Shown piece by piece: positions 1 to 13,777 of a DNA stretch of 64,000 nucleotides (its first letter is position 1; every line of letters begins with the position of its first letter). Under the pieces are notes generated by a model. It was not told the origin of the DNA and ran no database searches. It saw nothing but the letters and a program-made list of their open reading frames with translations. The stretch covers positions 1 to 64,000 of the forward strand of contig JADCGP010000017.1 in assembly GCA_020248915.1 (NCBI GenBank), given 5' to 3'. Source of the stretch: Rubrivivax sp. (GTDB lineage: Bacteria; Pseudomonadota; Gammaproteobacteria; Burkholderiales; Burkholderiaceae_C). Both the position numbers and the translations under genes were made by a program.

Positions 1-3
1 AAT

Positions 4-20
4 GCCCGCAGCGCGGGCTT
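4..20 (+). terminator. small GC hairpin at window edge, possible terminator
   Basis: A perfect 6-bp inverted repeat (GCCCGC at 4-9, GCGGGC at 13-18) with a 3-base loop sits between flanking A and T pairs. It resembles the core of a rho-independent terminator for a gene left of the window, but no real T run follows it, so the call is weak. Confidence 0.3.
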
Positions 21-38
21 CGTGCGAGACTTCATCTC

Positions 39-100
39 GGTGGTTCCTTTCTTTGCTTGCTAGGCACCTGGATGGTCTCATCCAGGCGAAAGGAACCGCC
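39..100. repeat. nested inverted repeat with strong predicted hairpin
   Basis: Bases 39-51 pair with 88-100 over 13 positions (12 Watson-Crick and one G-U). Inside them 67-74 pairs perfectly with 79-86 around a 4-base loop. The ATG of the first gene (72) lies inside the inner stem. The element could be a 5' leader structure controlling that gene, a recombination or transposition end, or a structured RNA. The sequence does not decide between these. Confidence 0.6.
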
Positions 101-476
101 ACCTTCAGCTCACGCGTTCAACAGACCTCGGGACATCGCCCTGTTGCTGGACCACGAACTGGTGGCGCTGCACAACCTGCAGACCGGCAAGTCGGTCAAC
201 TACCTGCGCAGCGACCCGCCGCTGCTGTGGCGGCGGTGCGAGGCGGTGATCGCGGTACTGGCCACGGTGGGCGGCATCGCGGCGTTCGCATTGGCTGGCG
301 GTGTCGCGCCGCTGGGGGCGGTCGTGGCCACGTTGATCGGTGCGCCCGGGGCGGTCAGCCTGCGTTTGCTGCGGCAAGTTCTGGCACGGCGTGCGATCGA
401 CCGCGCGTTGATCGAGGCGCTGCGCCAAGTGCGGCAGCCGGGGCTGAGTCACCCCGTCCTGCGCCGCGTGAAGTAG
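72..476 (+). CDS. small hypothetical membrane protein
   Basis: An open frame of 134 residues from ATG 72, or 139 from TTG 57. I do not recognise the family. The N-terminal half is soluble. Residues of about 60-100 form two adjacent hydrophobic stretches (AVIAVLATVGGIAAFALAGG, then APLGAVVATLIGAPG) that look like a membrane hairpin. The C-terminus is basic and helical. Codon choice looks like coding DNA, while the opposite strand reads as Gln/Arg-rich shadow. Both candidate starts lie inside a strong hairpin, so the start is uncertain. No partner gene shares its operon: 328 bases separate it from tacA. Confidence 0.45.
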   Translation: MVSSRRKEPPPSAHAFNRPRDIALLLDHELVALHNLQTGKSVNYLRSDPPLLWRRCEAVIAVLATVGGIAAFALAGGVAPLGAVVATLIGAPGAVSLRLLRQVLARRAIDRALIEALRQVRQPGLSHPVLRRVK

Positions 477-644
477 CGGGGACTTCGTAGGTCCGGTCAC
501 AAACTCGACACGCTAAGTGCCTGTCGGCGCAGGCGATTTCGGTCGCGGTTCGGTTAAGCACGGCCGGCAACCCTTAACCCGACGCCCCGCAGCCGCAGCA
601 GCCGGCCGCATGACTCTCCTCAGCGGGTTCGCCCGCCGCTACAC

Positions 645-689
645 CCCAAGCGTAGGAACGTGCGCATAAACGACGCTTCTACGCTTGGG
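645..689. repeat. perfect 11-bp inverted repeat
   Basis: CCCAAGCGTAG at 645-655 is the exact reverse complement of CTACGCTTGGG at 679-689, with a 23-base AT-richer spacer. It ends 115 bases before the tacA start. It could be a second regulator site, a recombinase core site, or a transcript hairpin. Confidence 0.6.
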
Positions 690-757
690 CAATAGCTGAG
701 CAGGCTTCGTCAACCGCGCGCGCCGCCGCCAGCGCCCCGTTATCGCCACAACAGCCC

Positions 758-786
758 TTGCCCCGTACGGACAGCTGCCGTACATT
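758..786 (+). promoter_or_regulatory. candidate sigma-70 promoter of tacA-tacT
   Basis: TTGCCC at 758-763 and TACATT at 781-786 are separated by 17 bases. Each matches four of six consensus positions. The -10 box lies 18 bases before the tacA ATG, so the transcript leader would be short and carry the AGGGA ribosome site at 793-797. Read by eye only. Confidence 0.45.
765..783. promoter_or_regulatory. candidate TacA operator palindrome
   Basis: GTACGG (765-770) and CCGTAC (778-783) form an inverted repeat around a 7-base spacer, between the -35 and -10 boxes and overlapping the -10. Ribbon-helix-helix antitoxins of this class usually repress their own promoter by binding such palindromes, so autoregulation is likely. 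Confidence 0.45.
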
Positions 787-804
787 CCACGCAGGGAGAT
801 AACC

Positions 805-1098
805 ATGGCCAACCAAGACACCCCTGACACCACCCGCGACGCCAGGCTGGAAGCCCGAGTGTCGGCAGCGCAGAAGAGCTTGCTCCAGCAGGCGGCGGCA
901 CTCTCTGGCCGCACGCTGAGCGAGTTTGTGGTCGCCAGCGCGCAGGACGCGGCGCGCCGGGTGATCGCGGAGCACGAGTCCATCCGCCTGTCGCGCGAGG
1001 AGCAGCTAGCCTTCGTGCAGGCCTTGCTGAACCCGTCGGAGCCGAACGCGCGCCTCAAGCGCGCGGCCAAGGCCTTCCGCCAACGCGCCGGCGCCTAG
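805..1098 (+). CDS. tacA: TacA-type (DUF1778) antitoxin
   Basis: 97 residues from an ATG with a good ribosome site (AGGGA, about 7 bases upstream). The N-terminal 50 residues match the ribbon-helix-helix pattern of DUF1778 antitoxins: a short basic strand (DARLEARVSAAQK) followed by two helices including SGRTLSEFVVASA. The C-terminal tail, rich in charged residues and ending in KRAAKAFRQRAG, is the expected toxin-binding part. In this family the antitoxin neutralises a GNAT toxin and represses the operon. The toxin gene starts 3 bases downstream, and a palindrome lies in the promoter. Length and context fit the family well. Confidence 0.88.
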   Translation: MANQDTPDTTRDARLEARVSAAQKSLLQQAAALSGRTLSEFVVASAQDAARRVIAEHESIRLSREEQLAFVQALLNPSEPNARLKRAAKAFRQRAGA

Positions 1099-1101
1099 CC
1101 G

Positions 1102-1617
1102 GTGGACTTGACCCGCATCACTGTCGAGCCCCTTGGCCGGCAGCACGACCGAACGGCCTTCCACTGCGGCGCGGAGGCGCTCGACCGCTATCTGAAGCAG
1201 CAGGCCAGGCAAGACGCCGAAAAGCGTGTCGCCGCGCCGTTCGTGGCTGTCAGCCCGCCCGACACGCGTGTGCTTGGCTACTACACCCTTTCGGCCTCGG
1301 TGCTGACCTTGGCGGACCTGCCTGACGACCTGGCTCGCAAGCTACCGCGTTATCCGCAGCTGCCCGTGACGCTGCTGGGCCGGCTGGCCGTCCACCAGGC
1401 CACCAAGGGCCAGGGGCTCGGCGAGCACCTGCTGCTGGACGCATTGCAGCGCAGTCTGATGCACGCCGACCAGATCGCCGCGATCGCCGTGGTGGTCGAC
1501 GCCAAGGGCGAGGAGGCCGCTCGCTTCTACGGCCACTACGGATTCAAGCCCCTGCAGGCGCATCCGCTAAGGCTGTTCGTGCCCATGACGACCGTCGCAA
1601 AGCTGCTGGGCGAGTGA
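1102..1617 (+). CDS. tacT: TacT-type GNAT acetyltransferase toxin
   Basis: 171 residues from a GTG start, 3 bases after tacA; no separate ribosome site is visible, so translation is probably coupled. Family toxins acetylate aminoacyl-tRNA and stop translation. Seen here: the N-terminal CGAEALDRYL pattern of the TacT group, acetyl-CoA binding motif A (QATKGQGLGEHLL, about residues 94-106), and the late FYGHYGF segment with the tyrosine used by GNAT toxins. Nothing looks damaged. The stop codon lies 8 bases before the hsdR ATG, so toxin, antitoxin and restriction genes may share transcripts. Confidence 0.87.
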   Translation: MDLTRITVEPLGRQHDRTAFHCGAEALDRYLKQQARQDAEKRVAAPFVAVSPPDTRVLGYYTLSASVLTLADLPDDLARKLPRYPQLPVTLLGRLAVHQATKGQGLGEHLLLDALQRSLMHADQIAAIAVVVDAKGEEAARFYGHYGFKPLQAHPLRLFVPMTTVAKLLGE

Positions 1618-1625
1618 GGCGAGTC

Positions 1626-4600
1626 ATGGCATCGGCACCTCCGCCCAGCAACTTCACGCATCTGCGCGCCCACGACGAGCAGTTGCTTCGGCTGGGGCAA
1701 CTGGCGGAGCGCTACTTCCCTGAAGACCCCAACACCTGCTTGCTGAAGCTGCGGCAGCTGGCCGAGCTGCTGGCCCAGCTGGTCGCTTCCAACGTCGGCC
1801 TGTTCACCTCGCCAGACGAGAAGCAGGCCGACCTGCTACGCCGCCTGCAGGACCAAGGCATTGTCCCGCGCGAGGTCGGGAACCTCTTCCACGAGGTTCG
1901 GCGCGCCGGCAACGACGCCAACCACCGCCTGGCAGGCGATCACCGCACAGCCCTGCTGGCGCTTCGCCTCACGTGGCAGCTGGGCGTGTGGTTCCACCGC
2001 ACCTTCAAGGACGCCGGCTTCAAGTCGGGGCCCTTCCAGCCTCCGTCACCACCAGCGAACCAGAGCGCCGAGCTGCAGGCCGAGCTGGACAGCCTGCGCA
2101 ACGAGCTGGCGCAGTACCGAGCGGCCCACCGGGACGCGACCCAAACGCTCGACCAGGTACAGGCCCAAGCCCAGCAAGCCGATCAGGACCGCGCATTCTG
2201 GGAATCCATGGCCGCGGAAGCCGAGGCCGCCAAGTCCGAACTGCAGCAACGGCTGCAAGCCCTGCAGGCTCAGGCCGAATCTGCACCGCCGCAAGCCATC
2301 GCCAAGTTCGTGGCGGCTGCCAACACGGCCGCGGCGTCCCTGCAGATCAGCGAACGCGACACACGCAAGCTGATCGACGAGCAACTGGCCGCCGCCGGAT
2401 GGACGGTCAACTCAGAGCACCTCACCTTCACCAAGGGAGCCAGGCCACAACGTGGCCAGAACCTCGCCATTGCCGAATGGCCGACGGAGACGGGGCCGGC
2501 CGACTACGCACTCTTCGTGGGCCTGGTGCCCATCGCCATCGTCGAAGCCAAGCGAAAGCACATCGACGTCTCGGGCGCGCTCCAGCAAGCCAAGCGCTAC
2601 AGCCGCGGCTTCAGGCCGTCTCCCGAGGTGGAGCTGCCAGCCTCCAACCACGGTGCACAAGGCGAGTTCCGCATTCCCTTCGTGTTCTCCACCAACGGTC
2701 GCCCTTACCTGCGGCAATTGGCCGAGAAAAGCGGCGTGTGGTTCTGCGACGTCCGCCGGCCCGAGAACCTGGGCCACGTGCTCGATGGCTGGTACACCCC
2801 CGAGGGCCTGAGCGCACTGCTCCAGCGCGACGATGCCCGCGCCCACGCCGAACTGGCCCAATCGCCCTTCGACTACGGCTTCCCGCTGCGGCCCTACCAG
2901 CAGCGGGCCATCCTGGCCACCGAAGCCAGCATCCGCGACGGGCAGCGGGCGATCCTGCTGGCCATGGCCACCGGCACCGGCAAGACCAAGACCTGCATCG
3001 CACTGATCTACCGCCTGCTCAAGGCCAAGCGCTTCCGGCGCATCCTGTTCCTCGTCGACCGTTCGGCCCTGGGCGAGCAGGCCGCCAACGCGTTCAAGGA
3101 CACGCGCATGGAACGCCTGCAGACCTTTGCCGACATTTTCGGCATCAAGGAGCTGGAAGACCAAGCGCCCGACGACGACACCGCCGTGCACCTGGCCACC
3201 GTGCAAGGCATGGTGCAGCGCGTGCTGTACCCCACCGACGGCACCGCGCCGCCACCCATCGACCAGTACGACTGCATCGTCGTCGACGAGTGCCATCGCG
3301 GCTACCTGCTGGACCGAGAGCTGTCCGACACCGAGCTCAGCTTCCGCGGCTACGACGACTACGTGTCCAAGTACCGGCGCGTGCTGGACTACTTCGACGC
3401 CGTGAAGGTCGGCCTGACCGCCACGCCCGCGCTGCACACCACGCAGATTTTCGGCGCTCCGGTTTTCACTTACGGCTACCGCGAGGCGGTGGTCGACGGC
3501 TATTTGGTGGACTACGAGCCGCCGATCCAGGTGCACACCCTGCTTTCCGGCCAAGGCATCGCATGGAAGGCTGGCGAAGAGGTCAAGGTCTACAACACCG
3601 GCCGCCAGCAGATCGAACTGTTCAAGACGCCCGACGAAATCAAGCTCAAGGTCGATGAGTTCAACCGCAAGGTCATCACGCGGCCGTTCAACGAGGTGGT
3701 TTGCACCTACCTGGCCCAGGAGCTGGACCCGGCCTCCCGCCGCAAGACGCTGATCTTCTGCGTCAGCGACAGCCATGCCGACATGGTGGTGGACTTACTG
3801 AAGAAGGCCTTCGCGGCGCAGTACGGCGCGGACGAAGACGACGCCGTCATCAAGATCACCGGCGCGGCCGACAAGCCCTTGCAGCTGATCCGCCGCTACA
3901 AGAACGAGCGCCTGCCCAACGTTGCGGTCACCGTCGACCTGCTGACCACGGGCGTGGATGTGCCGGAGATCTGCAACCTGGTGTTCCTGCGCCAGGTGAA
4001 CAGCCGCATCCTGTTCGACCAGATGCTGGGCAGGGCGACGCGGCTCTGCGACTTTGGCGGTACGGACGTGAAGGACTCGTTCCGAGTGTTCGACGCCGTT
4101 CGCATCTTCGAGGCCATCGGCGACATGACAGCCATGAAGCCGGTCGTCGTGAACCCGAAGATCACCTTCACCCAACTGGCGCAGGAACTGGCCACGCTGA
4201 AGGATGAATCGGCCACCGAACTGGCGCGCGACCAGTTTCTGGCCAAGCTGCAGGCCAAGAAGCGCCACTTGACCGACAAGAACCGGCAGGACTTCGAGAC
4301 CAAGGCGGGCATGCCGCTGCAGGCCTTCGTCCAGAAGCTCAAGGCCATGCCGTTGGCGGATGTGGCGGCCTGGTTCATCCAGAACCCGGACCTGGGCGAG
4401 CTGCTCGACCGCCGCAGCGATGGCCCCGAGCGCGAGATGTTCGTGTCAGAACACGCCGATGCCTTCGACCGCGCCGAGCGCGGCTACGGCAAAGGCAAGA
4501 AGCCCGACGACTACATCCGCGCCTTCAGCGACTTCATCAAGACGCAGGGCAACCAGATCCCGGCGCTGGTGACCGTGCTGACGCGGCCCCGTGAGCTGAC

Positions 4601-5042
4601 CCGTGCTCAGCTGCGCGAGCTGGTCTTGGCGTTGGACCGAGCTGGCTTCACCGAAACCAACCTCGCCTCGGCGTGGCGCGAGCTGACCAACCAGGACATC
4701 GCCGCGCGCATCGTGGGCTACATCCGCCAGGCAGCTATCGGTGACGCGCTGGTACCCTATGCCGAACGCGTCGAACGGGCTTTGCAGCATTTGCTGGCGC
4801 ATCCGCCTGCAGGCAAGCCCTGGAGCACACCGCAACGCGACTGGCTCAAGCGCATCGCCGCGCAGACCAAGGCCAATGTGCTGGTGGACCGCTCCGCCAT
4901 CGACGATCCCGACTTGATCTTCAAGCGCGAAGGCGGAGGCTTCAACCGGCTGGACAAGGTCTTCAACGGCCAACTCCAGCCCGTTCTTGATGCATTCAAC
5001 GACGCGCTGTGGGCCTTGCCGCCCGAATCTGCCAACCGCTGA
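1626..5042 (+). CDS. hsdR: type I restriction enzyme, motor/nuclease subunit HsdR
   Basis: 1138 residues from ATG 1626; an in-frame GTG at 1614 overlaps the tacT stop but lies before the GAGGCGA-like ribosome site. HsdR cuts DNA after ATP-driven translocation when bound to HsdM and HsdS. Order of domains: a helical DUF4145-like N-terminus (about 10-125); a long coiled coil (about 150-225); a nuclease domain with the IVEAK motif near residue 306 and QAKRY after it; a superfamily 2 helicase with Walker A ATGTGKT near 447, DECH near 554, GLTATP and QMLGRATRL; and an EcoEI-type C-terminal domain. All key motifs look intact. hsdM follows 20 bases later. The overall type is closest to the EcoEI/EcoAI (type IB) group. 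Confidence 0.95.
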   Translation: MASAPPPSNFTHLRAHDEQLLRLGQLAERYFPEDPNTCLLKLRQLAELLAQLVASNVGLFTSPDEKQADLLRRLQDQGIVPREVGNLFHEVRRAGNDANHRLAGDHRTALLALRLTWQLGVWFHRTFKDAGFKSGPFQPPSPPANQSAELQAELDSLRNELAQYRAAHRDATQTLDQVQAQAQQADQDRAFWESMAAEAEAAKSELQQRLQALQAQAESAPPQAIAKFVAAANTAAASLQISERDTRKLIDEQLAAAGWTVNSEHLTFTKGARPQRGQNLAIAEWPTETGPADYALFVGLVPIAIVEAKRKHIDVSGALQQAKRYSRGFRPSPEVELPASNHGAQGEFRIPFVFSTNGRPYLRQLAEKSGVWFCDVRRPENLGHVLDGWYTPEGLSALLQRDDARAHAELAQSPFDYGFPLRPYQQRAILATEASIRDGQRAILLAMATGTGKTKTCIALIYRLLKAKRFRRILFLVDRSALGEQAANAFKDTRMERLQTFADIFGIKELEDQAPDDDTAVHLATVQGMVQRVLYPTDGTAPPPIDQYDCIVVDECHRGYLLDRELSDTELSFRGYDDYVSKYRRVLDYFDAVKVGLTATPALHTTQIFGAPVFTYGYREAVVDGYLVDYEPPIQVHTLLSGQGIAWKAGEEVKVYNTGRQQIELFKTPDEIKLKVDEFNRKVITRPFNEVVCTYLAQELDPASRRKTLIFCVSDSHADMVVDLLKKAFAAQYGADEDDAVIKITGAADKPLQLIRRYKNERLPNVAVTVDLLTTGVDVPEICNLVFLRQVNSRILFDQMLGRATRLCDFGGTDVKDSFRVFDAVRIFEAIGDMTAMKPVVVNPKITFTQLAQELATLKDESATELARDQFLAKLQAKKRHLTDKNRQDFETKAGMPLQAFVQKLKAMPLADVAAWFIQNPDLGELLDRRSDGPEREMFVSEHADAFDRAERGYGKGKKPDDYIRAFSDFIKTQGNQIPALVTVLTRPRELTRAQLRELVLALDRAGFTETNLASAWRELTNQDIAARIVGYIRQAAIGDALVPYAERVERALQHLLAHPPAGKPWSTPQRDWLKRIAAQTKANVLVDRSAIDDPDLIFKREGGGFNRLDKVFNGQLQPVLDAFNDALWALPPESANR

Positions 5043-5062
5043 CCTTGTTCGAACCCCTATCC

Positions 5063-6658
5063 ATGTCCAACCACACTGCTGCACTCGACATCGGCGCCAA
5101 GCTCTGGTCGCTGTGCCACGTGCTGCGCGATGACGGCGTCACCTACCACCAATACCTGAGCGAGCTGACCTACCTGCTGTTCCTGAAGATGATGAAGGAG
5201 ACGGGGCAGGAGAGCCGCCTCAAAATTTGGAAAGCGAAGGACAAGAAGAAGGGTTCACCGAAGGAGGAGCAGGCCGGCACTCGTTGGGATGATCTGCTGG
5301 GCGCTTCTGCGCCGGACCGACTCGATCTCTACAAGGAGATGCTGCTGGACTACGGACTGCACGGCCGTGGCGCCGTGCAGGAGATCTACGCCAACGCCAA
5401 CACCTTCATCACCAAGCCAGCCACGCTGAGCAAGCTGGTGACCGACATCGACATCCTGGACTGGTACAGCGTCGACCGCGACGACCTGGGCGACCTGTAC
5501 GAAGACCTGCTGGAGCGCAACGCCGGCGAGAAGAAGAGCGGCGCTGGCCAGTACTTCACGCCCCGGCATCTGATCGACAGCATCGTGGCGGTGATGCAGC
5601 CCCAGCTGGGCGACGTAATCCAGGACCCGGCCGCCGGCACCTGCGGCTTCCTGATCGCGGCCAACAACTACCTGCGCCAGCACAACGACTTCGACAGCCT
5701 CAGCGACGAGGCGCAGCGCAAATACCGCCACCAGACTTTTCACGGCATGGAGCTGGTGCAAGACACGCACCGCCTGGCGCTGATGAACATGCTGCTGCAC
5801 GGCATCGAAGGCGGCGTGACCTATGGCGACACGCTGAGTGACGACCACAAAGGCCTGCCTCCGGCCACGCTGATCCTCAGCAACCCGCCCTTCGGCACAA
5901 AGAAGGGCGGCGGCCTGCCCACGCGCGGCGACCTCACCTTCGAGACCAGCAACAAGCAGTTCGCCTTCCTGCAGCACATCTACCGCGCGCTGAAGCCGGG
6001 CGGCCGCGCCGCCGTGGTGCTACCCGACAACGTGCTGTTCGAGAGCAACATCGGCACCGACATCCGGCGCGACCTGATGGACAAGTGCATCCTGCACACC
6101 ATCCTGCGTCTGCCCACCGGCATCTTTTACGCCCAGGGCGTGAAGACCAACGTGCTGTTCTTCACCCGCGGCGAGGCGGACAAGGGCAACACCAAGGAGG
6201 TGTGGGTGTACGACATGCGCGCCAACATGCCTGCGTTCGGCAAGCGCACGCCCTTCACGCGCGACTACTTCCGCACGCCGCCCGACGCCCCGTTCAGCCA
6301 GGCGCGCGACAAGTTCGAGGACGTTTTCGGCAGCGACCCGCGCGGTGGGCCGGCTGCGCTCGCGGCACGTCAGGACAGTGGAGAGGAGGGTCGCTGGCGC
6401 CGCTTCACGCGCGAGCAGATCGCGCAGCGGGGCGACAACCTGGACATCGCTTGGCTGAAGGACAGCGCCGCATCCACGGCGCAGCAGGAGAGCGAGAACC
6501 CGACGCGCGTAGCCGGGCTGGCGCTGCGCGAACTGAATGCCGCTGTGACCGAACTGCGTGCGCTGCTCGATGAATTGGGCGAGGACCCGGATGCGCTGCT
6601 GGACAGCCTAGTGACCGACGAGGCCGCTGAGCCCGAAGCTGTCGGAGCACAGCCGTGA
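5063..6658 (+). CDS. hsdM: type I DNA methyltransferase subunit HsdM
   Basis: 531 residues from ATG 5063 (MSNHTAAL), preferred to in-frame starts further upstream because the N-terminus then matches HsdM proteins. With HsdS it forms the N6-adenine methyltransferase that marks host DNA. Seen: the N-terminal HsdM_N helical domain (about 8-150), the S-adenosylmethionine motif DPAAGTCGF near residue 187, and the catalytic NPPF near residue 273. The last bases overlap the hsdS GTG by four (GTGA), so subunit ratios are likely set by coupling. No truncation or lesion is seen. Confidence 0.95.
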   Translation: MSNHTAALDIGAKLWSLCHVLRDDGVTYHQYLSELTYLLFLKMMKETGQESRLKIWKAKDKKKGSPKEEQAGTRWDDLLGASAPDRLDLYKEMLLDYGLHGRGAVQEIYANANTFITKPATLSKLVTDIDILDWYSVDRDDLGDLYEDLLERNAGEKKSGAGQYFTPRHLIDSIVAVMQPQLGDVIQDPAAGTCGFLIAANNYLRQHNDFDSLSDEAQRKYRHQTFHGMELVQDTHRLALMNMLLHGIEGGVTYGDTLSDDHKGLPPATLILSNPPFGTKKGGGLPTRGDLTFETSNKQFAFLQHIYRALKPGGRAAVVLPDNVLFESNIGTDIRRDLMDKCILHTILRLPTGIFYAQGVKTNVLFFTRGEADKGNTKEVWVYDMRANMPAFGKRTPFTRDYFRTPPDAPFSQARDKFEDVFGSDPRGGPAALAARQDSGEEGRWRRFTREQIAQRGDNLDIAWLKDSAASTAQQESENPTRVAGLALRELNAAVTELRALLDELGEDPDALLDSLVTDEAAEPEAVGAQP

Positions 6659-8277
6659 CGGAAGCAGCTTCGGTTGGGGCCGACGGCACACTAGGCACGG
6701 ACCTGCCTCCGAGCTGGGCAGTCACGACCCTGGGCACAGTCACCGACTACGGCAAGACCGTGAAGGTCGAGCCGGCGGAAATTCCCGCCGATGCTTGGGT
6801 GTTGGAGTTGGAGGACATTGAGAAGGACAGCTCGCGCATCCTGCAGCGGCTAACCCAGTCCCAGCGGCAGTCGCTCAGCACGAAGAACCGCTTCGACGTC
6901 GGTGATGTTCTCTACGGCAAGCTGCGGCCGTACCTCAACAAGGTGGTCATCGCCGACACGCCTGGCTTCTGCACCACGGAGATCGTGCCTGTGCACGCCG
7001 GCCCAGCGCTCGAACGACGATACCTGTTCCACTGGCTCAAGCATCCCGCTTTTCTGAAGTACGTTGAGGCCACCAGCCATGGCATGAACATGCCGCGCTT
7101 GGGAACCGACGCCGGCAGAGCGGCGCCGATGGTCCTAGCGCCGCGGCCCGAACAGACCCGCATCGCCGACCAACTCGACACCCTGCTGGCTCGCATCCAA
7201 GCCTGCCAGGACCGCCTGGAGGCCATTCCGGCGTTGCTCAAGCGCTTTCGGCAGGCGGTGCTGGGCGCGGCGACCAGTGGTTCACTGACAGCGGATTGGC
7301 GCAAAGACCGTGAAACACCTGCTTGGGTCCCCACCAGCATCGGTGACTTACTCGATGGCAAGCCGAGAAATGGCTACTCGCCAAAGTCTGTTGAGTACGA
7401 GACTTCGGTCCGATCCTTGACGCTTTCGGCGACCACCTCCGGACGCTTCCTGTCGCAACACACAAAGTTCATTCCTGAATCGATTCCAGCTGACTCCCAC
7501 CTCTGGCTGGAGCCAGGAGACATCCTGATTCAGCGAGCCAACACGCTTGAGTACGTCGGCGTGAGTGCAATCTTCGACGGACCGCCCCAGTCCTTCATCT
7601 ATCCCGACCTGATGATGAAGTGCCGCCCAAACAACCGAGTGGACGGCCGGTTTCTATACTTCCTACTGAGTGCTGAGTCCACGAGACGGTACTTCCGCGA
7701 TCACGCCACTGGCACGGCCGGCAACATGCCGAAGATCAACCAGCAGACTGTCATGTCAGCGCCGGTTAATCTGCCACCCATGGATGAACAGGTCGAGATC
7801 GTCCGGCGGGCGAATCGGCTGCTTCACGCATTGAGCCAGTTGGAGCAACGGCACACGGCCGCGGCGGCATTTACACGCCGGCTCACCCCCTTGACGCTCG
7901 CCAAAGCCTTCCGCGGCGAACTCGTTCCGCAAGACCCCAGCGACGAGCCCGCCAGCGAGCTGCTGGCCCGCATCGTCGCCCAACGCGACGCGCCGACAGA
8001 CACCACCTCGGCCCCCCCACCGCGCCGCGGCCGTCCGCCCCGGGCCCTCAAGGAAACCGCCACCATGACCAAGAGCCGCCAGGACGATGACGTGATGGGC
8101 CAGCCCTACCTGGCCGGCCACCTGCGCCGCTTCGGCTCGCCCGCCAGCGCCGAGGCGCTGTTCAAGGTGGCTGAGCTGCCCGTGGCCGACTTCTACAAGC
8201 AACTGGCCTGGGAGGTAGACCAGGGTCACGTGAAGGACAACCAGACCTCGCTGGAGCCCGGGCATGCGGCTGGATAA
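6655..8277 (+). CDS. hsdS: type I specificity subunit HsdS
   Basis: 540 residues from GTG 6655. HsdS reads the two halves of the target sequence and holds the HsdM and HsdR subunits. Two target recognition domains are visible (about 10-160 and 218-370). Each is followed by a conserved helical spacer beginning PRPEQTRI and PPMDEQVEI. The segment coding for the second recognition domain (about 7,320-7,700) is visibly less GC rich than its surroundings, as expected for a swapped domain. After the second spacer is a Pro/Arg-rich linker and an unusual C-terminal part of about 70 residues that looks like a small helical, possibly winged-helix, domain (ALFKVAELPVADFYKQLAW). The end overlaps the next gene by 14 bases. 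Confidence 0.93.
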   Translation: MTEAASVGADGTLGTDLPPSWAVTTLGTVTDYGKTVKVEPAEIPADAWVLELEDIEKDSSRILQRLTQSQRQSLSTKNRFDVGDVLYGKLRPYLNKVVIADTPGFCTTEIVPVHAGPALERRYLFHWLKHPAFLKYVEATSHGMNMPRLGTDAGRAAPMVLAPRPEQTRIADQLDTLLARIQACQDRLEAIPALLKRFRQAVLGAATSGSLTADWRKDRETPAWVPTSIGDLLDGKPRNGYSPKSVEYETSVRSLTLSATTSGRFLSQHTKFIPESIPADSHLWLEPGDILIQRANTLEYVGVSAIFDGPPQSFIYPDLMMKCRPNNRVDGRFLYFLLSAESTRRYFRDHATGTAGNMPKINQQTVMSAPVNLPPMDEQVEIVRRANRLLHALSQLEQRHTAAAAFTRRLTPLTLAKAFRGELVPQDPSDEPASELLARIVAQRDAPTDTTSAPPPRRGRPPRALKETATMTKSRQDDDVMGQPYLAGHLRRFGSPASAEALFKVAELPVADFYKQLAWEVDQGHVKDNQTSLEPGHAAG

Positions 8278-9856
8278 GGTCAGCATCGACGGCTTCAAGA
8301 ACCTCCGCGGGCTGGAGCTCGACTTCGACGAGCGCCAGCTCACCACGGTGTTGATCGGCCAGAACGGCGCCGGCAAGTCCAACCTCATTGAAGCAATCAC
8401 CCAGGTCTTCCGCTGGGTAGACCTGCGGCGCAACGAGCCGCGCTTTCGCTACCGGGTGACCTACCGCATCCAGCCTCAGGGCCCGGCGATCCAGAACCCG
8501 CCGAGCGTGTGCCTGAGCAACTTCCCCGACGAGCCGGCGATTGGGGTCAACGGGCAGGAGGTGAAGCGCACCGAGTTCGAGAAGCGCAAGGCCGAGTGGT
8601 TTCCAGACCTGGTGTTCGGCTACTACTCCGGCGGCAGCCGCCGGCTGGAAGCGCTGTTCGACAGCCACCAGCGGCGCTACTACGACGACATCAAGCTCGA
8701 AGACGACGAAGCCAAGGTGGCCAAGGCGCAGGAAGCCCGGCGCCTCTTCTACTGCCGGCCCATCCATGGCGTGCTGGCGCTGATGGCACTGTTCGCGTTT
8801 CCGGATGCCAAGGTGACCGCCGAGCTCGCTGGCCGTTTGGGCATCACCGGCTTTCATTCGCTGCTGGCTCTGTTCCGAGAACCCTGGTTCGCCAAAGGCC
8901 GCAAGACCAGCGCCGAAGAGCTGTGGGGCGCAGGAGGACCCGCCGGCCGCGCTGCACGCCGCTTCAAGGAGTTGGCCTTTCACCCGTTTGCGCTCGAAGG
9001 CAATGCGGTCGATGACTACCGCGACAAGAAGCAGGTGGAGCCACAGTTCGCTGCCTTCCTGCCATCGCTGGTGCGGCTGCAGCAACTAGCGCAGCAGTTC
9101 AGGAACGAGCGCGAGATGTTCTACGCCCTGGAGGCGATGGACATCTCCGACCTGGTGCGCGAGATACAGGTCTGGGTGAAGCGCAGCAACGACACCAGCG
9201 GCGACGTAGGCTTTGCCGACCTCTCCGACGGTGAGCGGCAGTTGCTGATGGTGCTGGGCCTGATCCGCGTCTCACGCGGCAAGCGAGCGCTCTTCCTGCT
9301 GGACGAACCCGACACGCACCTCAACCCGCACTGGCAGCACAGCTACCTGAAGCTGATCGAGGACTGGACTGGCATCGCGGCCGAGAAGGAGCACTGCCAC
9401 ATCGTGCTGACCTCGCACAACCCGCTCACGATTTCAGCGCTCTCGCGGGACGAGGTACGGGTGATCGCGCAGACCGACGATGGCCGCGTGACCGCATCCG
9501 CGCCATATGCCGACCCGCGTGGCATGGGCTTCACGGCCACGCTGACCGAGATCTTCGGCCTGGCGACGAGCCTGGACGTCGAAACCCAGCGCCTGGTGGA
9601 CGAGCGCAACGAGCTGGTGCAGTTGGCCGAACGCGGCGACGCGCAGCAGCGTCGGCTCATTTCGCTGAATGAACAGCTGGCCCGACTCGGCTTCCTGAAT
9701 GAAGACCGGGAGCCGCTCTACCAAGACTTCCTGCGCGCCTGGCATGACCTGCGCTACGCAGATCGGCCGCCCCTGGCACCCGCAGACGTGGAGGCACGAC
9801 AGCGCGCGATGAAGGAGCTAATCAAGCAGCTGATGACTTCGGAGGCCAAGCAGTGA
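8264..9856 (+). CDS. PtuA-like AAA/ABC-type ATPase (Septu-like)
   Basis: 530 residues from ATG 8264, which lies 14 bases inside the end of hsdS. The protein is of the SMC/RecF-like class: Walker A IGQNGAGKSN (about residues 29-38), a long helical insert, signature LSDGERQLL (about 322-330), Walker B ALFLLDEPDTHLNP (about 344-357) and the switch histidine in VLTSHNP. The C-terminal helical section resembles PtuA. In known Septu systems PtuA assembles with an HNH nuclease, PtuB, and senses infection; here the next gene, overlapping by four bases, encodes exactly such a partner. Placement inside a type I operon rather than alone is unusual. Other AAA_21 defence ATPases are the alternative. Confidence 0.78.
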   Translation: MRLDKVSIDGFKNLRGLELDFDERQLTTVLIGQNGAGKSNLIEAITQVFRWVDLRRNEPRFRYRVTYRIQPQGPAIQNPPSVCLSNFPDEPAIGVNGQEVKRTEFEKRKAEWFPDLVFGYYSGGSRRLEALFDSHQRRYYDDIKLEDDEAKVAKAQEARRLFYCRPIHGVLALMALFAFPDAKVTAELAGRLGITGFHSLLALFREPWFAKGRKTSAEELWGAGGPAGRAARRFKELAFHPFALEGNAVDDYRDKKQVEPQFAAFLPSLVRLQQLAQQFRNEREMFYALEAMDISDLVREIQVWVKRSNDTSGDVGFADLSDGERQLLMVLGLIRVSRGKRALFLLDEPDTHLNPHWQHSYLKLIEDWTGIAAEKEHCHIVLTSHNPLTISALSRDEVRVIAQTDDGRVTASAPYADPRGMGFTATLTEIFGLATSLDVETQRLVDERNELVQLAERGDAQQRRLISLNEQLARLGFLNEDREPLYQDFLRAWHDLRYADRPPLAPADVEARQRAMKELIKQLMTSEAKQ

Positions 9857-10716
9857 TCTACGTCCGGCGAGATCCGAACCACATACCGGAGCGGGTGCTG
9901 CGTGTCGCCGAACGCGCACAGGCCCAGCTGGAGGCGCTTGCGCCGGAGAACCGCGCCGCGTTCATCGAGAAGAAGTCTCATGTGTGGCGCGGGTTCGCTC
10001 GCTACCTGGCCAAGATGTCGTACGGCAAGTGCTGGTACTCGGAGAGCGACTGCGTTCAGTCGTTCAAGGACGTGGACCACTACCGACCGAAGAAGCAGGC
10101 CAAGCGCAGCGACACCGAGAGTGACGACGGCTACCCGTGGCTCGCGTTTTCGTGGGACAACTTCAGGCTTGCGGCTCAGCGGTCGAATCAGATCAACCGC
10201 GATGACGAGACCGATGAATCGGTCGGCAAAGGCGCATGGTTCCCGCTGATGCAGGGCAGCAAGCTGGCGACGTGGGATGACCGCTGCATCGCCGACGAAC
10301 GCCCGGCGCTATTGGATCCGGCCAGGGTGACCGACGTCAGACTCATCGAGGTCACCGCCACCGGGAGGATGGGGCCAACCAGGCTCTGCCTGGGCGAGTA
10401 CGAACGAACACGCGTCAGCACGACAGTCAAGCTCCTCGGTCTGGACCTGCCCGGCCTTGTGTCGGCACGCCAGCGCACCATGCGGCTGGTGCAGGATCTG
10501 GTGGATCAGGTTGAGAAAGCGCTCGTCGCTGCCGACTCAGGCGCGGAGGCTGCGGCCTTTGTGGCAAATCACATGCCCATCGGCGGCCAGTTGAATCTGC
10601 TGCAACGCCTGACCGAACCGAGCCAACCGTATGCCGCTGCGGCACGGGCGCAACTGCGCTTTCTGGGCTACGCCGAGCTTTGTGCTCCGGTCGAACAGTT
10701 GGGGGCCGCTGCATGA
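9853..10716 (+). CDS. PtuB-like HNH endonuclease family protein
   Basis: 287 residues from GTG 9853, overlapping the ATPase stop by four bases. The layout follows PtuB/TIGR02646-like HNH proteins: a Cys-containing turn (KCWYSES, C60), then DVDHYRPKK with the Asp75-His76 catalytic position, then YPWLAFSWDNF and a later FPL element. The usual two Cys pairs that bind structural zinc are mostly gone: the second Cys of the first pair is Ser63, and the later CxxCN is AQRSN (108-112). Only C60 and C67 remain near the turn. The DH residues are kept, so catalysis may survive with a differently held fold. A role in cutting nucleic acid is inferred from family and context. Confidence 0.7.
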   Translation: MIYVRRDPNHIPERVLRVAERAQAQLEALAPENRAAFIEKKSHVWRGFARYLAKMSYGKCWYSESDCVQSFKDVDHYRPKKQAKRSDTESDDGYPWLAFSWDNFRLAAQRSNQINRDDETDESVGKGAWFPLMQGSKLATWDDRCIADERPALLDPARVTDVRLIEVTATGRMGPTRLCLGEYERTRVSTTVKLLGLDLPGLVSARQRTMRLVQDLVDQVEKALVAADSGAEAAAFVANHMPIGGQLNLLQRLTEPSQPYAAAARAQLRFLGYAELCAPVEQLGAAA

Positions 10717-11690
10717 GTGACATCAAGCTCTTCAGGCTGCAAGTCGGCAAAGCCATCGAACTCCAGGGAGACGCCTCCGACCTGGAGAAGCCGCTTCAGA
10801 CGCTGATCGAGGCCAACCTCGACACCCTGCTTGGCATCCGCTTCCTGGCCACCGAGTACTCAACAGGAAAGACGCACGCGGGCCGCATCGACTCACTGGG
10901 CCTGGACGAGAACAACTGCCCCGTCATCCTGGAATACAAGCGCTCGATGGGCGAGAACGTCATCAACCAGGGTCTGTTCTACCTGGACTGGCTTATGGAC
11001 CACCAGGCCGAGTTCAAGCTGCTGGTGATGGACCAACTCGGCAAGCCTGCGGCCGATGCCATCGATTGGACCGCGCCGCGGCTGGTGTGCATTGCGGCCG
11101 ACTTCACCAAGTACGACGGGCATGCCGTTCAACAGATCAACCGCAACATCGAGTTGATCCGCTACCGGCGCTTCGGCGACGAGTTGCTGCTCCTGGAACT
11201 GGCCAATGCAGCCAGTGCCAATGCGGGCAAGGCGTCAAGCGCCAAGGCGGCGAAACCGGCCAAGACGGCGGCTGCGCCAACGGCAGAGCCCACCGGCGCC
11301 AAAAGTGCTGGCGGCGACCGTTCCTATGCCGACTGGCTACCGCTGCTGCCGCCACACCTCAGCGAACTGGTGGCATCGCTGGAGGGGCACGTCCTATCGC
11401 TGGGCGACGACGTGCAGCGCAAGGAGCTCAAGCTCTACGTGGCCTTCAAGCGCCTGAAGAACTTCGCCACCGTGGTGCCGCAGAAGAACCGCCTGCTGCT
11501 CTACCTGCACCTGGACCCCGCGAAGGTGGTGCCGATGCCGCCGAATGGTCAGGATGTCAGCCAGAAGGGGCACTGGGGCACGGGTGACCTGGAGCTGTCG
11601 CTGTCGTCGCAGGCTGATCTGGATGCCGCGAAGCCGCTGATCCTGATGGCCTATGAGGGGCGTGCACCGGCGCCCGCCTTGGGGCTCTAA
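10713..11690 (+). CDS. NucS-like PD-(D/E)XK nuclease with DUF5655-like C-terminus
   Basis: 325 residues from ATG 10713, overlapping the HNH stop (ATGA). The N-terminal domain (about 1-165) has a restriction-like nuclease pattern: GRIDSLGL with Asp60, then VILEYK with Glu74 and Lys76, then QGLFYLDWL, as in DUF91/NucS-type proteins. A low-complexity Ala/Lys/Ser/Thr linker (about 165-200) leads to a C-terminal domain (about 205-325) with VAFKRLKNF and the KGHWGTGD segment that fits DUF5655. The family is often found near restriction genes. Substrate and role are unknown. It is the last gene of the coupled block; 66 bases follow before the next unit. Confidence 0.72.
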   Translation: MSDIKLFRLQVGKAIELQGDASDLEKPLQTLIEANLDTLLGIRFLATEYSTGKTHAGRIDSLGLDENNCPVILEYKRSMGENVINQGLFYLDWLMDHQAEFKLLVMDQLGKPAADAIDWTAPRLVCIAADFTKYDGHAVQQINRNIELIRYRRFGDELLLLELANAASANAGKASSAKAAKPAKTAAAPTAEPTGAKSAGGDRSYADWLPLLPPHLSELVASLEGHVLSLGDDVQRKELKLYVAFKRLKNFATVVPQKNRLLLYLHLDPAKVVPMPPNGQDVSQKGHWGTGDLELSLSSQADLDAAKPLILMAYEGRAPAPALGL

Positions 11691-11756
11691 TGTCGAGCGA
11701 GCACACTTAGACCAGTTGCCGCGAATGCCCGAGATACAAATGCCTGAGAGTGCCCC

Positions 11757-13094
11757 ATGTTGACCTCATTCAGTTTGCGAGACTTCAAGAGCTTCAGAGA
11801 GGCCAGTTTGCCGCTGGGGCCGCTGACGGTCCTGATTGGGGCCAATGCGGCCGGCAAGAGCAATGCAATCGAGGCACTTCGGCTGCTTTCCTGGCTCGCC
11901 CAGGGACAGAAGCTCACGTCCATTCAGTACGCAGTCAACAGCGCGGATCGAGTGGTGCGAGGGCGCGTTGAAGACCTCTGCCACCGGGGCGTGATGAAGT
12001 TCAGTCTGGGCTGCAGGACCGACGATCGCCACTGGAACCGATTGGAGATGCAGCTGACCGTTCGCGACGGCGAGCTTCACATCACCGGTGAACAGGTCGA
12101 TGAGATCGCCGAGAACCTTCCCCTGTACATGATGGACCGACCGTCGCAGGGCCTGAGTACCGATGCGGGTGTGGCCTACAACAACTTCGCGCGGGGCGGG
12201 AACAAGCCGCACGTCACGGTCAGCGACCAGATGGCGGTGTTCGTCCAGTTCGAAAGCGCAGTCCGTTTCGAGGCGGGCCATAAGAAGGCGCAGGAGACGA
12301 TTCCGGCGGTGGCCAAGCGGCTCCAGACCACGCTGTCGAACATTCTTTTTCTCGACCCCGCTCCGGCGCGGATGCGCGAGTACAGCTTCACCAACGACAA
12401 GCGCCTGCTGGGCGACGGGACCAACCTGTCAAGCGTTTTGCACCGACTTTGGGGTCCTGACGGTGAGTCGGACAAAGAGCCCTTCGCCGGCCAGCGCCAG
12501 GCCATCCTCGACTTCATCCAAAGCCTGCCAGAACAGGACATCTCGGGCCTGAGCTTCCTCGATGGCCCGCGCGGCGAGGTGATGGTCCAGTTGCAGGAGA
12601 CTTTCGGCGGCACCCCTCGGGTTTATGACGCGTCGCTGCTCTCCGACGGCACGTTGCGCGTTCTGGCCATCGCAGCCGCCATGCTCTCCGCGCCAGAAGG
12701 GAGCCTTGTCGTCATTGAAGAGATCGACAACGGCGTGCATCCAAGCCGCGCCAGGCACCTCCTCGACAGCATCCGCAGCGTCGCCGAGCGACGCAAGCTG
12801 CGCGTGCTGTTGTCCACGCACAACCCCGCCATGCTGGATGCCCTGCCCGACGCCGCAGTACCTGACGTCGTCTTCTGCTACCGCGATCCGGCCAGCGGGG
12901 CGAGCAAGCTGATTCGGATGAACGCGATTCCTGATGTGCCCGAACTGCTCGTGCAAGGCCCACTCGGCCACCTGATGACATCTGGCGCACTGGAACGATT
13001 CGTCAAGACCCACAAAGGGCCGGACGCGCGCAAGCAGCAGGCAAAGGCATGGCTCGAATCGCTGAAGGCGGCAAAGCCGAGTGTTGGCGAATGA
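11757..13094 (+). CDS. AAA_21-type ATPase paired with a PIN protein
   Basis: 445 residues from ATG 11757. RecF/OLD-like ATPase: Walker A IGANAAGKSN (about residues 27-36), signature-like LLSDGTLRVLAIA (about 297-309), Walker B SLVVIEEIDNGVHP (about 319-332) and the switch histidine in LLSTHNP. It is clearly different from the PtuA-like ATPase upstream, with a shorter central insert. The stop overlaps the start of a PIN-domain gene (ATGA), so the two products are likely partners: ATPase as sensor and PIN as effector, by analogy with other ATPase-nuclease defence pairs such as PARIS. No named system is assigned. It has its own short leader of 66 bases. Confidence 0.8.
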   Translation: MLTSFSLRDFKSFREASLPLGPLTVLIGANAAGKSNAIEALRLLSWLAQGQKLTSIQYAVNSADRVVRGRVEDLCHRGVMKFSLGCRTDDRHWNRLEMQLTVRDGELHITGEQVDEIAENLPLYMMDRPSQGLSTDAGVAYNNFARGGNKPHVTVSDQMAVFVQFESAVRFEAGHKKAQETIPAVAKRLQTTLSNILFLDPAPARMREYSFTNDKRLLGDGTNLSSVLHRLWGPDGESDKEPFAGQRQAILDFIQSLPEQDISGLSFLDGPRGEVMVQLQETFGGTPRVYDASLLSDGTLRVLAIAAAMLSAPEGSLVVIEEIDNGVHPSRARHLLDSIRSVAERRKLRVLLSTHNPAMLDALPDAAVPDVVFCYRDPASGASKLIRMNAIPDVPELLVQGPLGHLMTSGALERFVKTHKGPDARKQQAKAWLESLKAAKPSVGE

Positions 13095-13567
13095 GCGGAA
13101 TCGTCATCGTCGACACCTCGGTGCTGCTGAACATCCTCGATGTTCCGGGGCGCAACGAGAGCCGGGGCGAGGTGCTGGCTGAGCTTGAGAAGCTGATCGA
13201 GGCCAGCAATCACCTGTTCATCCCGATGGCTGCCATCGTCGAGGTCGGGAATCACATCGCCCAGCTTGGCGACGGTGCTCAGCGCAGGGCCGCGGCGGAG
13301 CGCTTCATTGCCGAAGTGAGGAAAGCCCTTGCAGATGAGGCGCCGTGGAAGCCGATCAACTTCCCCTCCAACCAGGAGGTACTGAGTTGGCTCGATGCGT
13401 TCCCAGACGCAGCCATGCAGGGCTTGGGCATGGGCGACCTCTCCATCAAGAAGGAGTGGGAAGACCTGTGCGCGAGGTACCGGATGAGTCGCGTTCGGGT
13501 CTGGACTCTCGACGACGACCTGGCCGGGCTCGACCGTGCCGTGCTCGCGCGCCGCCGGGTGACCTAG
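13091..13567 (+). CDS. PIN-domain ribonuclease-like protein
   Basis: 158 residues from ATG 13091, chosen because it overlaps the ATPase stop and starts directly at the PIN core. The four acidic positions of a PIN active site can be placed: Asp8 (IVDTSVLLN), Glu51 (AIVEVGNH), Asp116 (GMGDLSIKKEWE) and Asp141-143 (WTLDDDLAG). PIN proteins cut RNA in many VapC-type toxins. No VapB-like antitoxin is present; the coupled AAA ATPase takes its place. The likely role is an effector held in check or directed by that ATPase. Last gene of the island. Confidence 0.75.
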   Translation: MSGIVIVDTSVLLNILDVPGRNESRGEVLAELEKLIEASNHLFIPMAAIVEVGNHIAQLGDGAQRRAAAERFIAEVRKALADEAPWKPINFPSNQEVLSWLDAFPDAAMQGLGMGDLSIKKEWEDLCARYRMSRVRVWTLDDDLAGLDRAVLARRRVT

Positions 13568-13587
13568 ACTCTGCAAAGGCGCCCGTC

Positions 13588-13616
13588 GCGGGCTGACAAC
13601 ATCCACTCCAGCCCGC
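13588..13616. repeat. 8-bp inverted repeat after the PIN gene
   Basis: GCGGGCTG and CAGCCCGC are perfect reverse complements with a 13-base loop, 20 bases after the PIN stop. Either a weak terminator or part of the island border. Confidence 0.4.
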
Positions 13617-13623
13617 AATTCCT

Positions 13624-13643
13624 GTGTACCCACACGTGTACCC
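13624..13643. repeat. paired GTGTACCC repeats with central palindrome
   Basis: Two 8-base direct copies lie 12 bases apart; between and overlapping them is ACACGTGT. The spacing of about one helix turn suits a protein-binding site. It could also be an old recombination scar at the island edge. Confidence 0.4.
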
Positions 13644-13777
13644 GCCAGCGACCTCGAACCGGCAAACCCAGCATCCATGCGGCTTCCCGGCCGATCTCCC
13701 TGAGCAGGTGCAGAACATCGAGTGAGGCTTCGGGGCAGCTGCCCTGCGTGCTTGCCGCATGCGGCTTGCCCGATCGC

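What the first reader, a model, noticed from the sequence alone, without database searches (positions are those of the whole stretch)
1626..11690. Type I restriction operon with a built-in Septu-like ATPase/HNH pair and an extra nuclease
hsdR, hsdM, hsdS, PtuA-like, PtuB-like and NucS/DUF5655-like genes lie in one direction with gaps of 20 bases or less and overlaps of 14, 4, 4 and 4 from hsdM on. Accessory genes in type I loci are known (PrrC, RloA/RloB), and Septu is known as PtuA-PtuB, also in retron Ec78. A single coupled operon holding all three activities suggests a layered response: restriction first, ATPase-nuclease if restriction fails. The tail nuclease has no clear place in either system.
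Basis: partly seen in the sequence, partly recalled or inferred. Interest (0 to 1): 0.78.

Follow-up and report, generated by a model that had tools for sequence, protein, structure and literature searches.

The report
Septu nuclease wired to methyltransferase
In this bacterial anti-virus operon a Septu ATPase-nuclease pair appears to be coupled to the DNA-recognition half of a restriction system through a small domain on the recognition subunit, and related operons keep this arrangement even when the classical restriction enzyme is missing.

Summary
The six-gene operon is real and not chance clustering, but it is more than a type I system with extras.

In 30 of 30 scorable loci (29 relatives, plus the window), PtuA-PtuB directly follows an HsdS that ends in an extra tail of about 62-83 aa. 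HsdS from type I loci without this PtuA lack it: 0 of 13. The tail changes hands with PtuA rather than with HsdM. HsdR, the classical restriction subunit, is dispensable: present in 14 loci, absent in 14, unseen in 2. Four whole genomes and four whole plasmids with HsdR-less cassettes contain no HsdR nuclease domain. The DUF5655 nuclease is optional.

Best reading: HsdM-HsdS plus tail is the sensor and PtuAB the effector; HsdR is a second, optional effector. An in-frame ATG marks the tail's start in 26 of 27 hsdS, and databases also hold the tail as a separate small protein.

Docking, trigger and target (DNA or tRNA) are inferred. No structure prediction could be run. The 2024 'embedded defences' preprint, which may overlap, could not be read.

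The parts
1626..5042 (+). hsdR, type I restriction subunit (PRK11448 / EcoEI-like): HSDR_N nuclease with D...EAK, GTGKT and DECH motifs; possible GTG start at 1614. Optional part of the system
   Evidence: (NF008521 1568 bits); absent in 14 of 28 loci that could be judged
5063..6658 (+). hsdM, type I N6-adenine methyltransferase; DPAAGTCGF and NPPF motifs present
6655..8277 (+). hsdS, specificity subunit with a variable body, a basic Pro-rich linker and a C-terminal tail
8065..8274 (+). HsdS tail: 70-aa module, candidate adaptor for PtuA; in-frame ATG at 8065 with AAGGA at 8050-8054, 10 bases upstream; may also be made as a free small protein
8264..9856 (+). ptuA, ABC/AAA_21 ATPase (PADLOC PtuA model PDLC00293); Walker A, signature and Walker B/DEPD motifs present; overlaps hsdS by 14 bases
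9853..10716 (+). ptuB, HNH-type nuclease by PADLOC model (CWYSE...DVDHYRPK); the second cysteine of a CxxC-like pair is Ser here, Cys in some relatives
10713..11690 (+). PDC-S18 protein: NucS_C-like PD-(D/E)xK region (GRIDSLG...ILEYK) and DUF5655; optional extra
805..1617 (+). TacA-like antitoxin 805-1098 and GNAT (TacT-like) protein 1102-1617; overlaps the possible GTG start of hsdR. Not part of the conserved core
   Evidence: found in 1 of the 17 loci (L003)
11757..13567 (+). PDC-M07A ATPase 11757-13094 and PDC-M07B PIN-like protein (about 13091-13567). Adjacent candidate defence pair, not part of the core
   Evidence: also in 1 of the 17 loci (L003)

Best explanation
This is a methylation-guided Septu. 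HsdM and HsdS form a type I-like complex that marks the host's own sites and recognises foreign DNA or interference with itself. PtuA-PtuB is the effector, coupled to that complex through the tail on the C-terminus of HsdS (and perhaps a free copy of the tail made from an internal start). When HsdM-HsdS meets unmarked phage DNA, or is hit by a phage anti-restriction protein, PtuA's ATPase releases or activates the PtuB nuclease against DNA or tRNA. HsdR and the DUF5655 nuclease are optional further effectors on the same sensor. Shown here: conserved linkage, tail-PtuA association, joint exchange of tail and PtuA, HsdR-less loci and genomes, conserved catalytic motifs. Inferred: physical docking, trigger, target and order of events.
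For: (1) 30 of 30 scorable loci (29 plus the window) have HsdS+tail directly before PtuA-PtuB, in beta-, gamma- and alphaproteobacteria, on chromosomes and plasmids; HsdM is seen in 29. A cut-off contig (L027, not counted) shows, by eye, a tail-like C-terminus overlapping ptuA. (2) The tail is absent from the HsdS of 13 of 13 type I loci without this PtuA (10, 3). (3) Tail and PtuA travel together. L049 against L050, L051 and L036 has HsdM 86, 89 and 82% identical but tail 20, 24, 23% and PtuA 47, 46, 48%. L035 against L036 has HsdM 56%, tail 74%, PtuA 81%. Partial rank correlation tail~PtuA given HsdM is 0.61 (0 of 2000 permutations as high), tail~HsdM given PtuA 0.11 (23 of 27 loci). (4) hsdR is missing from 14 of 28 loci where it could be seen. 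HSDR_N is absent from the genomes of Pseudomonas sp. B28, Duganella lactea, G412 and G672 and from four whole plasmids (9 of 14 control genomes ring). On the HsdM tree well-supported branches force at least 4 changes of hsdR presence; on the PtuA tree the fewest is 4, of which 2 are forced. (5) HsdM motif NPPF is in 25 of 25 proteins that span it, a motif I pattern in 24 of 25 (not L047); PtuA motifs in 26 of 27 (L048 is frame-broken). (6) In the window's clade HsdS bodies have median identity 37%, tails 78%, as expected if recognition domains are exchanged and the tail is kept.
Against: No interaction, expression or phage data. No structure model (tool switched off); the winged-helix reading of the tail rests on sequence pattern, and Pfam gives only insignificant hits. 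The tail profiles were built from many of the loci they then score or their close kin (L032-L035 and L047-L050 are in the distant profile), so those match by construction; L036, L051 and L069-L071 were not in it. Single-profile searches between the two tail groups are weak (best E 0.004 and 0.025); only the profile-profile comparison is significant. L034 has the most divergent tail and no internal ATG. L032 and L033 have HsdM after PtuB. PtuB is exchanged on its own (L050 vs L051: PtuA 75%, PtuB 32%), and L013's PtuB does not match the motif pattern. L048 has a frame-broken ptuA. Adjoining DNA can be exchanged together without any protein contact. An hsdR elsewhere in the E. coli genomes was not excluded (not searched). 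The two genomes of the undecided loci L006 and L016 do hold HSDR_N genes (4 and 2 matches). The loci share ancestry (L069 and L070 are near-identical), so 30 of 30 is not 30 independent events.
Confidence: 0.6

Rival explanations
1. Guard model, as PrrC beside EcoprrI: PtuAB is a latent (t)RNase held silent by the type I complex and released only when a phage protein inhibits that complex. It does not use methylation to choose its target.
For: PrrC lies inside a type I locus and fires when T4 Stp inhibits it (PMC12707154 passages); PrrC170 is a four-gene HsdR, HsdS, PrrC, HsdM set (PMC11555353 passages). Retron-Eco7 PtuAB depletes tRNA-Tyr and is toxic unless held by RT plus msDNA; Septu EcB88 cleaves tRNA-Tyr.
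Against: In 14 of 28 loci there is no hsdR to guard, yet HsdM motifs are kept and HsdS bodies diverge, which suggests active methylation and changing specificity.
Confidence: 0.22
2. Co-transcription only: PtuAB and type I act separately; the HsdS tail is a regulatory or stabilising domain that merely overlaps ptuA and is carried along with it by exchange of neighbouring DNA.
For: Tail and ptuA overlap or adjoin, so one recombination event can move both without contact between the proteins. No interaction has been measured.
Against: The tail is absent from the 13 HsdS looked at beside no such PtuA, and present in the 30 scorable loci (and window).
Confidence: 0.13
3. Chance clustering of three unrelated systems in a defence island.
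For: Other defence genes flank the operon (PDC-M07 by PADLOC; TacAT-like by Pfam), and islands collect such genes.
Against: HsdS-PtuA-PtuB kept together in 30 of 30 scorable loci across distant hosts (and window), with an 11- or 14-base hsdS/ptuA overlap kept in the 16 related loci.
Confidence: 0.03

Closest known systems
Septu (PtuA-PtuB)
   Same: PtuA and PtuB match PADLOC Septu models over nearly their full length; ATPase motifs and the DH...PK part of HNH present; solved sequences found by the PtuA profile include PtuA 8ee4 and retron PtuA chains
   Different: Always joined to a tailed HsdS in the loci scored, with HsdM in 29 of 30 (and window); Septu is described as ptuA plus ptuB (PMC13096335 passages)
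Type I restriction-modification, PRK11448/EcoEI-like HsdRMS
   Same: Complete HsdR, HsdM, HsdS in the window
   Different: HsdS carries an extra C-terminal module; related loci drop HsdR and keep HsdM-HsdS-PtuAB
Retron I-A (Ec78/Eco7; 'Septu type II')
   Same: PtuAB as portable effector held by another sensor (PMC11555353 and PMC8565338 passages)
   Different: The proposed sensor is a DNA methyltransferase-specificity pair, not reverse transcriptase plus msDNA; no RT among the operon genes
PrrC in EcoprrI-type loci
   Same: ABC-ATPase toxin gene coupled to type I genes
   Different: Two-gene ATPase + HNH, not PrrC; HsdR not required; tail on HsdS
MADS (methylation-associated defence system)
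   Same: Type I-like MTase and S subunit associated with an AAA ATPase (model names; gene make-up recalled)
   Different: MAD2, MAD3, MAD5 models far below cut-off (82.5 of 720, 19.8 of 420, 50.6 of 400 bits)
TIGR04435 restriction system-associated AAA family ATPase; Septu embedded in Hma; PDC candidates
   Same: ATPases already noted beside restriction genes by family name; Septu found with Hma (passages); DUF5655 gene already modelled as PDC-S18
   Different: PtuA here scores 124 of the 300 bits needed for TIGR04435; no account of the HsdS tail or the HsdR-less cassette was seen in what I searched

Membership tests
Septu | PtuA ABC-type ATPase with Walker A, signature, Walker B | tested here: met
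Septu | Adjacent PtuB matching a PtuB model | tested here: met
   PDLC00343 292 bits
Septu | Complete H-N-H catalytic motif in PtuB | tested here: inconclusive
   DVDHYRPK present; my pattern for the Asn part matched only 1 of 27, so the Asn was not scored; no Pfam HNH hit, TIGR02646 18 of 52 bits
Septu | Self-contained two-gene locus | tested here: not met
   HsdS+tail directly upstream in 30 of 30 scorable loci (and window)
Septu | Anti-phage activity dependent on both genes | not testable with these tools
   -
Type I restriction-modification | HsdR, HsdM and HsdS present with motifs | tested here: met
   in the window; HsdR missing in 14 of 28 loci
Retron I-A / Septu type II | Reverse transcriptase and msDNA upstream of ptuA | tested here: not met
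   hsdS lies directly upstream; no RT among the ten proteins scanned. No RNA-family search was run
PrrC-type guard | PrrC ABC-ATPase/anticodon nuclease protein | tested here: not met
   no PrrC family in the lists (only the best 25 shown for PtuA)
PrrC-type guard | Partner is a complete type I enzyme with HsdR | tested here: inconclusive
   window yes; 14 of 28 loci no
PrrC-type guard | Activation on inhibition of the type I complex | not testable with these tools
   -
MADS | MAD2, MAD3, MAD5 models above curated cut-off | tested here: not met
PARIS (AriA-AriB) | AriA best model | tested here: not met
   AriA 86 bits against PtuA 591 bits

The most novel reading that the evidence does not exclude
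A restriction class without a classical restriction enzyme: a type I methyltransferase-specificity complex licenses a Septu ATPase-nuclease through an exchangeable tail on HsdS, which is also made from an internal start as a free third subunit. Effectors (PtuAB, HsdR, DUF5655 nuclease) would then be modules plugged onto one DNA-methylation sensor.
Probability: 0.35. Interest if true: 0.85.

Novelty: new variant of a known kind. Interest (0 to 1): 0.7.

Why it matters
How Septu is triggered, and how accessory genes in type I loci are coupled to the methyltransferase, are to my knowledge open questions. This locus offers a concrete link, a ~70 aa tail on HsdS that moves with PtuA, and natural HsdR-less versions that can be tested in a laboratory strain: 10 of 5426 E. 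coli genomes match together, and all 6 inspected are local HsdR-less cassettes. If right, DNA methylation can serve as the self/non-self signal for an effector other than HsdR, and some 'orphan' type I methyltransferases may belong to complete defence systems that software would call as two unrelated ones.

Tried and rejected
Viral contigs and phage records: no relatives of PtuA (window PtuA, L035 PtuA) or of the tail. Plasmid tblastn with the window's 70-aa tail alone found nothing. Solved structures: no sequence match at E<=1 for PtuB or the DUF5655 protein; tail-profile matches to designed PPR proteins (E down to 6e-12) cover about 27 residues, have no single stretch that passes, and were set aside as repeat artefacts. 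Pfam on 56 tails: 16 families at E 0.015-0.24, each in 1 or 2 members, none accepted. Papers: searches showed no account of an HsdR-less HsdM-HsdS-PtuAB cassette or of the HsdS tail in what I saw (listings, and passages of seven papers found by term search); others (MADS; PDB codes) returned nothing. No paper was read whole. Payne et al. 2024 (bioRxiv 2024.01.29.577857) and Li et al. 2024 (PMC12318543) are not held, so overlap with them is unchecked.

Considered and rejected: that the tail is ordinary HsdS sequence (13 of 13 PtuA-less HsdS lack it; most stop in the linker, while L062, L063, L066 and L028 run some 15-45 residues further with unrelated sequence); that HsdR-less loci are contig-end artefacts (1.1-8.4 kb held before the first gene in all 14; the shortest, L036, lies on a wholly searched plasmid); that HsdR sits elsewhere (not found in four genomes and four plasmids; not tested for E. 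coli).

Left out of counts: L007 (contig shows unrelated sequence just before ptuA), L027 (cut off), L058 (Vibrio anguillarum, reading frames broken), L026 (PtuA ~28% identical, no tail, other HNH partner). Among the controls, L062 has an ATPase gene about 1 kb after hsdS with a 29-bit PtuA hit, and L063 shows no hsdR (its match lies near the start of the circular record). Correlations used 23 of the 27 loci then in hand (L002, L006, L016, L048 dropped as partial or broken).
Full report
WHAT IS THERE. The window is the first 64 kb of contig 9 of a 4.35 Mb genome. Six open genes run in one direction: hsdR 1626-5042, hsdM 5063-6658, hsdS 6655-8277, ptuA 8264-9856, ptuB 9853-10716 and a NucS_C/DUF5655 gene 10713-11690, with one 20-base gap and then overlaps of 4, 14, 4 and 4 bases. 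PADLOC calls the pair PtuA/PtuB and the last gene PDC-S18, a class of candidates that PMC12988326 describes as found by 'guilt-by-embedding' (passages; the preprint itself is not held). A TacA/GNAT pair precedes hsdR and a PDC-M07A/B pair follows; among the 17 loci these recur only in L003 (matches over 60 bits). The 4-kb bins of 1-12000 have 64-67% GC, those of 16001-64000 67-73%, mostly 71-73%, so the block was probably acquired. No sigma-70-type promoter-like site was found by a simple scan of 400-13700, where chance gives about 1.

CONSERVATION. One scan of named genomes gave 17 loci with PtuA 69-97% identical. Other searches added distant ones: five plasmids at 31-37% identity, two genomes besides the own one in a 398-genome phylum sample, and 10 of 5426 E. 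coli genomes (union of 8 and 9; 6 of the 10 inspected). In all, 29 relatives plus the window hold enough upstream sequence to score, and 30 of 30 have HsdS directly before PtuA-PtuB (window). HsdM is seen in 29; the 30th, L016, starts inside hsdS. Order is M-S-A-B in 27 of the 29 and S-A-B-M in two plasmids (L032, L033). In L048 ptuA is split by a frame break. The clade is rare: 3 of 369 genomes of the class match at E<=1e-20, own genome included, and one of these (G077/L026) is the 28% outgroup.

THE HSDS TAIL. In all 30, HsdS ends in an extra module after a variable, basic, Pro-rich linker. In the window's clade (16 loci compared) tails have a median identity of 78%, close to PtuA 77% and HsdM 79%, while the rest of HsdS has 37%. 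The distant loci carry a related module: profile-profile comparison of 48 close with 8 distant tails gives probability 93% and E 3.5e-7 over 48 columns. Single-profile searches across the two groups are weak (best E 0.004 and 0.025), and L034 is the most divergent. The profiles used for scoring were built from many of the same loci, which therefore match by construction; L036, L051 and L069-L071 were not among them and match too. The pattern suggests a small winged-helix domain, but that is my reading: Pfam does not confirm it, and no structure could be predicted.

CONTROLS FOR THE TAIL. I looked at 13 HsdS from type I loci of the same HsdM family without this PtuA: ten from plasmid records, chosen by hand from the listings to spread over organisms, and three from the class sample (L028-L030). 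None has the tail by either profile. Most stop in the linker; a few run 15-45 residues further with unrelated sequence. L026, whose PtuA is only 28% identical and whose HNH partner is different, has no tail either.

EXCHANGE OF MODULES. Comparing 23 loci pairwise, tail identity follows PtuA (rho 0.79) more than HsdM (0.64). Given HsdM, the tail-PtuA partial correlation is 0.61 (0 of 2000 permutations as high), while tail-HsdM given PtuA is 0.11. Among the nine distant loci alone the rho values are 0.63 and 0.13. Single pairs are plainer: L049 against L051 has HsdM 89%, tail 24%, PtuA 46%; L034 against L035 HsdM 84%, tail 35%, PtuA 47%; L035 against L036 HsdM 56%, tail 74%, PtuA 81%. So the break lies inside hsdS, before the tail. 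Because tail and ptuA adjoin, linkage alone could explain part of this. PtuB is exchanged separately (L050 against L051: PtuA 75%, PtuB 32%).

HSDR IS OPTIONAL. hsdR is present in 14 loci (two of them only in part, at contig ends: L011, L017), absent in 14, and cannot be judged in L006 and L016. L069 and L070 are near-identical strains. PF04313 finds no HsdR nuclease domain in the genomes holding L009 and L010 or in the whole plasmids of L032, L033, L035 and L036, nor in G412 and G672, both listed as 100% complete; it rang in 9 of 14 control genomes in each call. It did find matches in the genomes of the two undecided loci, L006 (4) and L016 (2). NF008521 agrees for L009, L010 and three plasmids, with a 12-bit noise hit in the fourth, and finds the expected HsdR in three positive controls. 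G672 is the genome with the broken ptuA, so there the system may be dead. On the HsdM tree (24 rows) well-supported branches force at least four changes of hsdR presence; on the PtuA tree (26 rows) the fewest is four, of which two are forced; both have some long branches. The DUF5655 gene occurs in 10 of 12 hsdR-bearing loci whose downstream flank can be judged (absent in L004, L034; L002 ends inside ptuB, and L017 keeps about 300 bases after it and shows none) and in 0 of 14 hsdR-less loci. In L034 a different restriction endonuclease gene fills that slot.

AN INTERNAL START. 26 of 27 hsdS examined have an in-frame ATG where the tail begins (the exception is L034), although Met is 1.3% of residues and the linker is variable. 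I searched a 30-codon window, in which a Met by chance is expected in roughly a third of genes; the position is the same in all 17 of the window's clade. A ribosome-binding-site match of at least 5 bases at spacing 4-12 precedes 16 of 26, against 5 of 145 other in-frame ATGs (Fisher p about 6e-12, not corrected for kinship); with at least 4 bases it is 19 of 26 against 24 of 145, with 6 it is 2 of 26 against 2 of 145. In the window's clade a Lys-Glu codon pair supplies the match. Database searches find the tail as separate small proteins: 86 clusters for the window type (the 47 that I aligned all begin at this Met) and 27 for the E. coli type (13 sequences seen), some on contigs of 0.36-5.3 Mb (P0066 Rhodobacter capsulatus, P0207 Klebsiella, P0213 Acinetobacter, P0224 Salmonella). 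Many lie on short contigs, and several look like longer HsdS fragments (P0030, P0077, P0209, P0215, P0230). I could not see the context of any, so a separate gene and a broken hsdS cannot be told apart. The fused form is common: 532 proteins match, 117 of the 120 listed bearing the HsdS Pfam domain.

HOW IT MOST LIKELY WORKS. HsdM keeps its catalytic motif (NPPF in 25 of 25 proteins that span it) and HsdS bodies diverge, so the module probably still marks and reads sequence-specific sites. PtuA keeps its ATPase motifs in 26 of 27, and PtuB the CWY[SCT]E...DH...PK part in 26 of 27 (not L013); the Asn of HNH was not scored. In E. coli Septu, mutations of the Walker motifs and of the HNH His or Asn abolish defence (PMC13096335 passages). 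PtuAB effectors are known with another sensor, the retron RT-msDNA pair, and with different targets: tRNA-Tyr, or nicked DNA as reported for another Septu (PMC11555353 and PMC13096335 passages). I therefore propose HsdM-HsdS plus tail as the sensor for this branch of Septu. The PrrC precedent (PMC12707154 passages) makes a guard function the main rival; HsdR-less loci count against a pure guard of restriction, but not against sensing of phage proteins that bind HsdM-HsdS.

NOVELTY AND LIMITS. Parts and neighbourhoods are known. Septu models cover this PtuA clade, an NCBI family name already speaks of restriction-associated ATPases (TIGR04435, 124 of 300 bits), Septu with Hma is published (PMC8565338 and PMC12255303 passages), and MADS joins an MTase and S subunit to an ATPase (model names; gene make-up recalled). 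What I did not find, in the searches listed under Tried and rejected, is the HsdS tail, its association with PtuA, or the HsdR-less cassette. All of this is sequence evidence; nothing about binding, trigger or target has been measured.

Noticed in passing
window 805-1617: TacA-like/GNAT toxin-antitoxin pair whose second gene overlaps the possible GTG start of hsdR; a 91-93% identical pair lies before hsdR in L003.
   Followed up: partly
window 11757-13567: PDC-M07A ATPase and PDC-M07B PIN-like pair (candidate defence pair by PADLOC), 96-99% identical pair in the same place in L003.
   Followed up: partly
window 9853-10716 and relatives: PtuB exists in CWYCE and CWYSE/CWYTE forms that are exchanged between otherwise similar loci, e.g. 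L050 against L051.
   Followed up: partly
L034 12443-13486: A different gene annotated as restriction endonuclease lies directly after ptuB, where the window has the DUF5655 nuclease; this slot may be a variable cargo site.
   Followed up: no
L028 6998-8083: In a PtuA-less type I locus a YhcG/DUF1016 PD-(D/E)xK nuclease gene sits between hsdM and hsdS.
   Followed up: no
L026 138-2398: Type I locus with a distant PtuA-like ATPase (28% identical) and another HNH-like protein, no HsdS tail: possibly a separate restriction-associated ATPase/nuclease pair.
   Followed up: no
L048 8055-9775 (G672): The ptuA reading frame is split in two pieces in an otherwise complete HsdR-less locus.
   Followed up: no
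L049-L051, L069-L071: E. coli HsdR-less cassettes sit at more than one chromosomal place (beside ygbA/flhA in L049, L051, L071; beside dinD/yicG in L050, L069, L070), several with integrase or Fic genes nearby.
   Followed up: no
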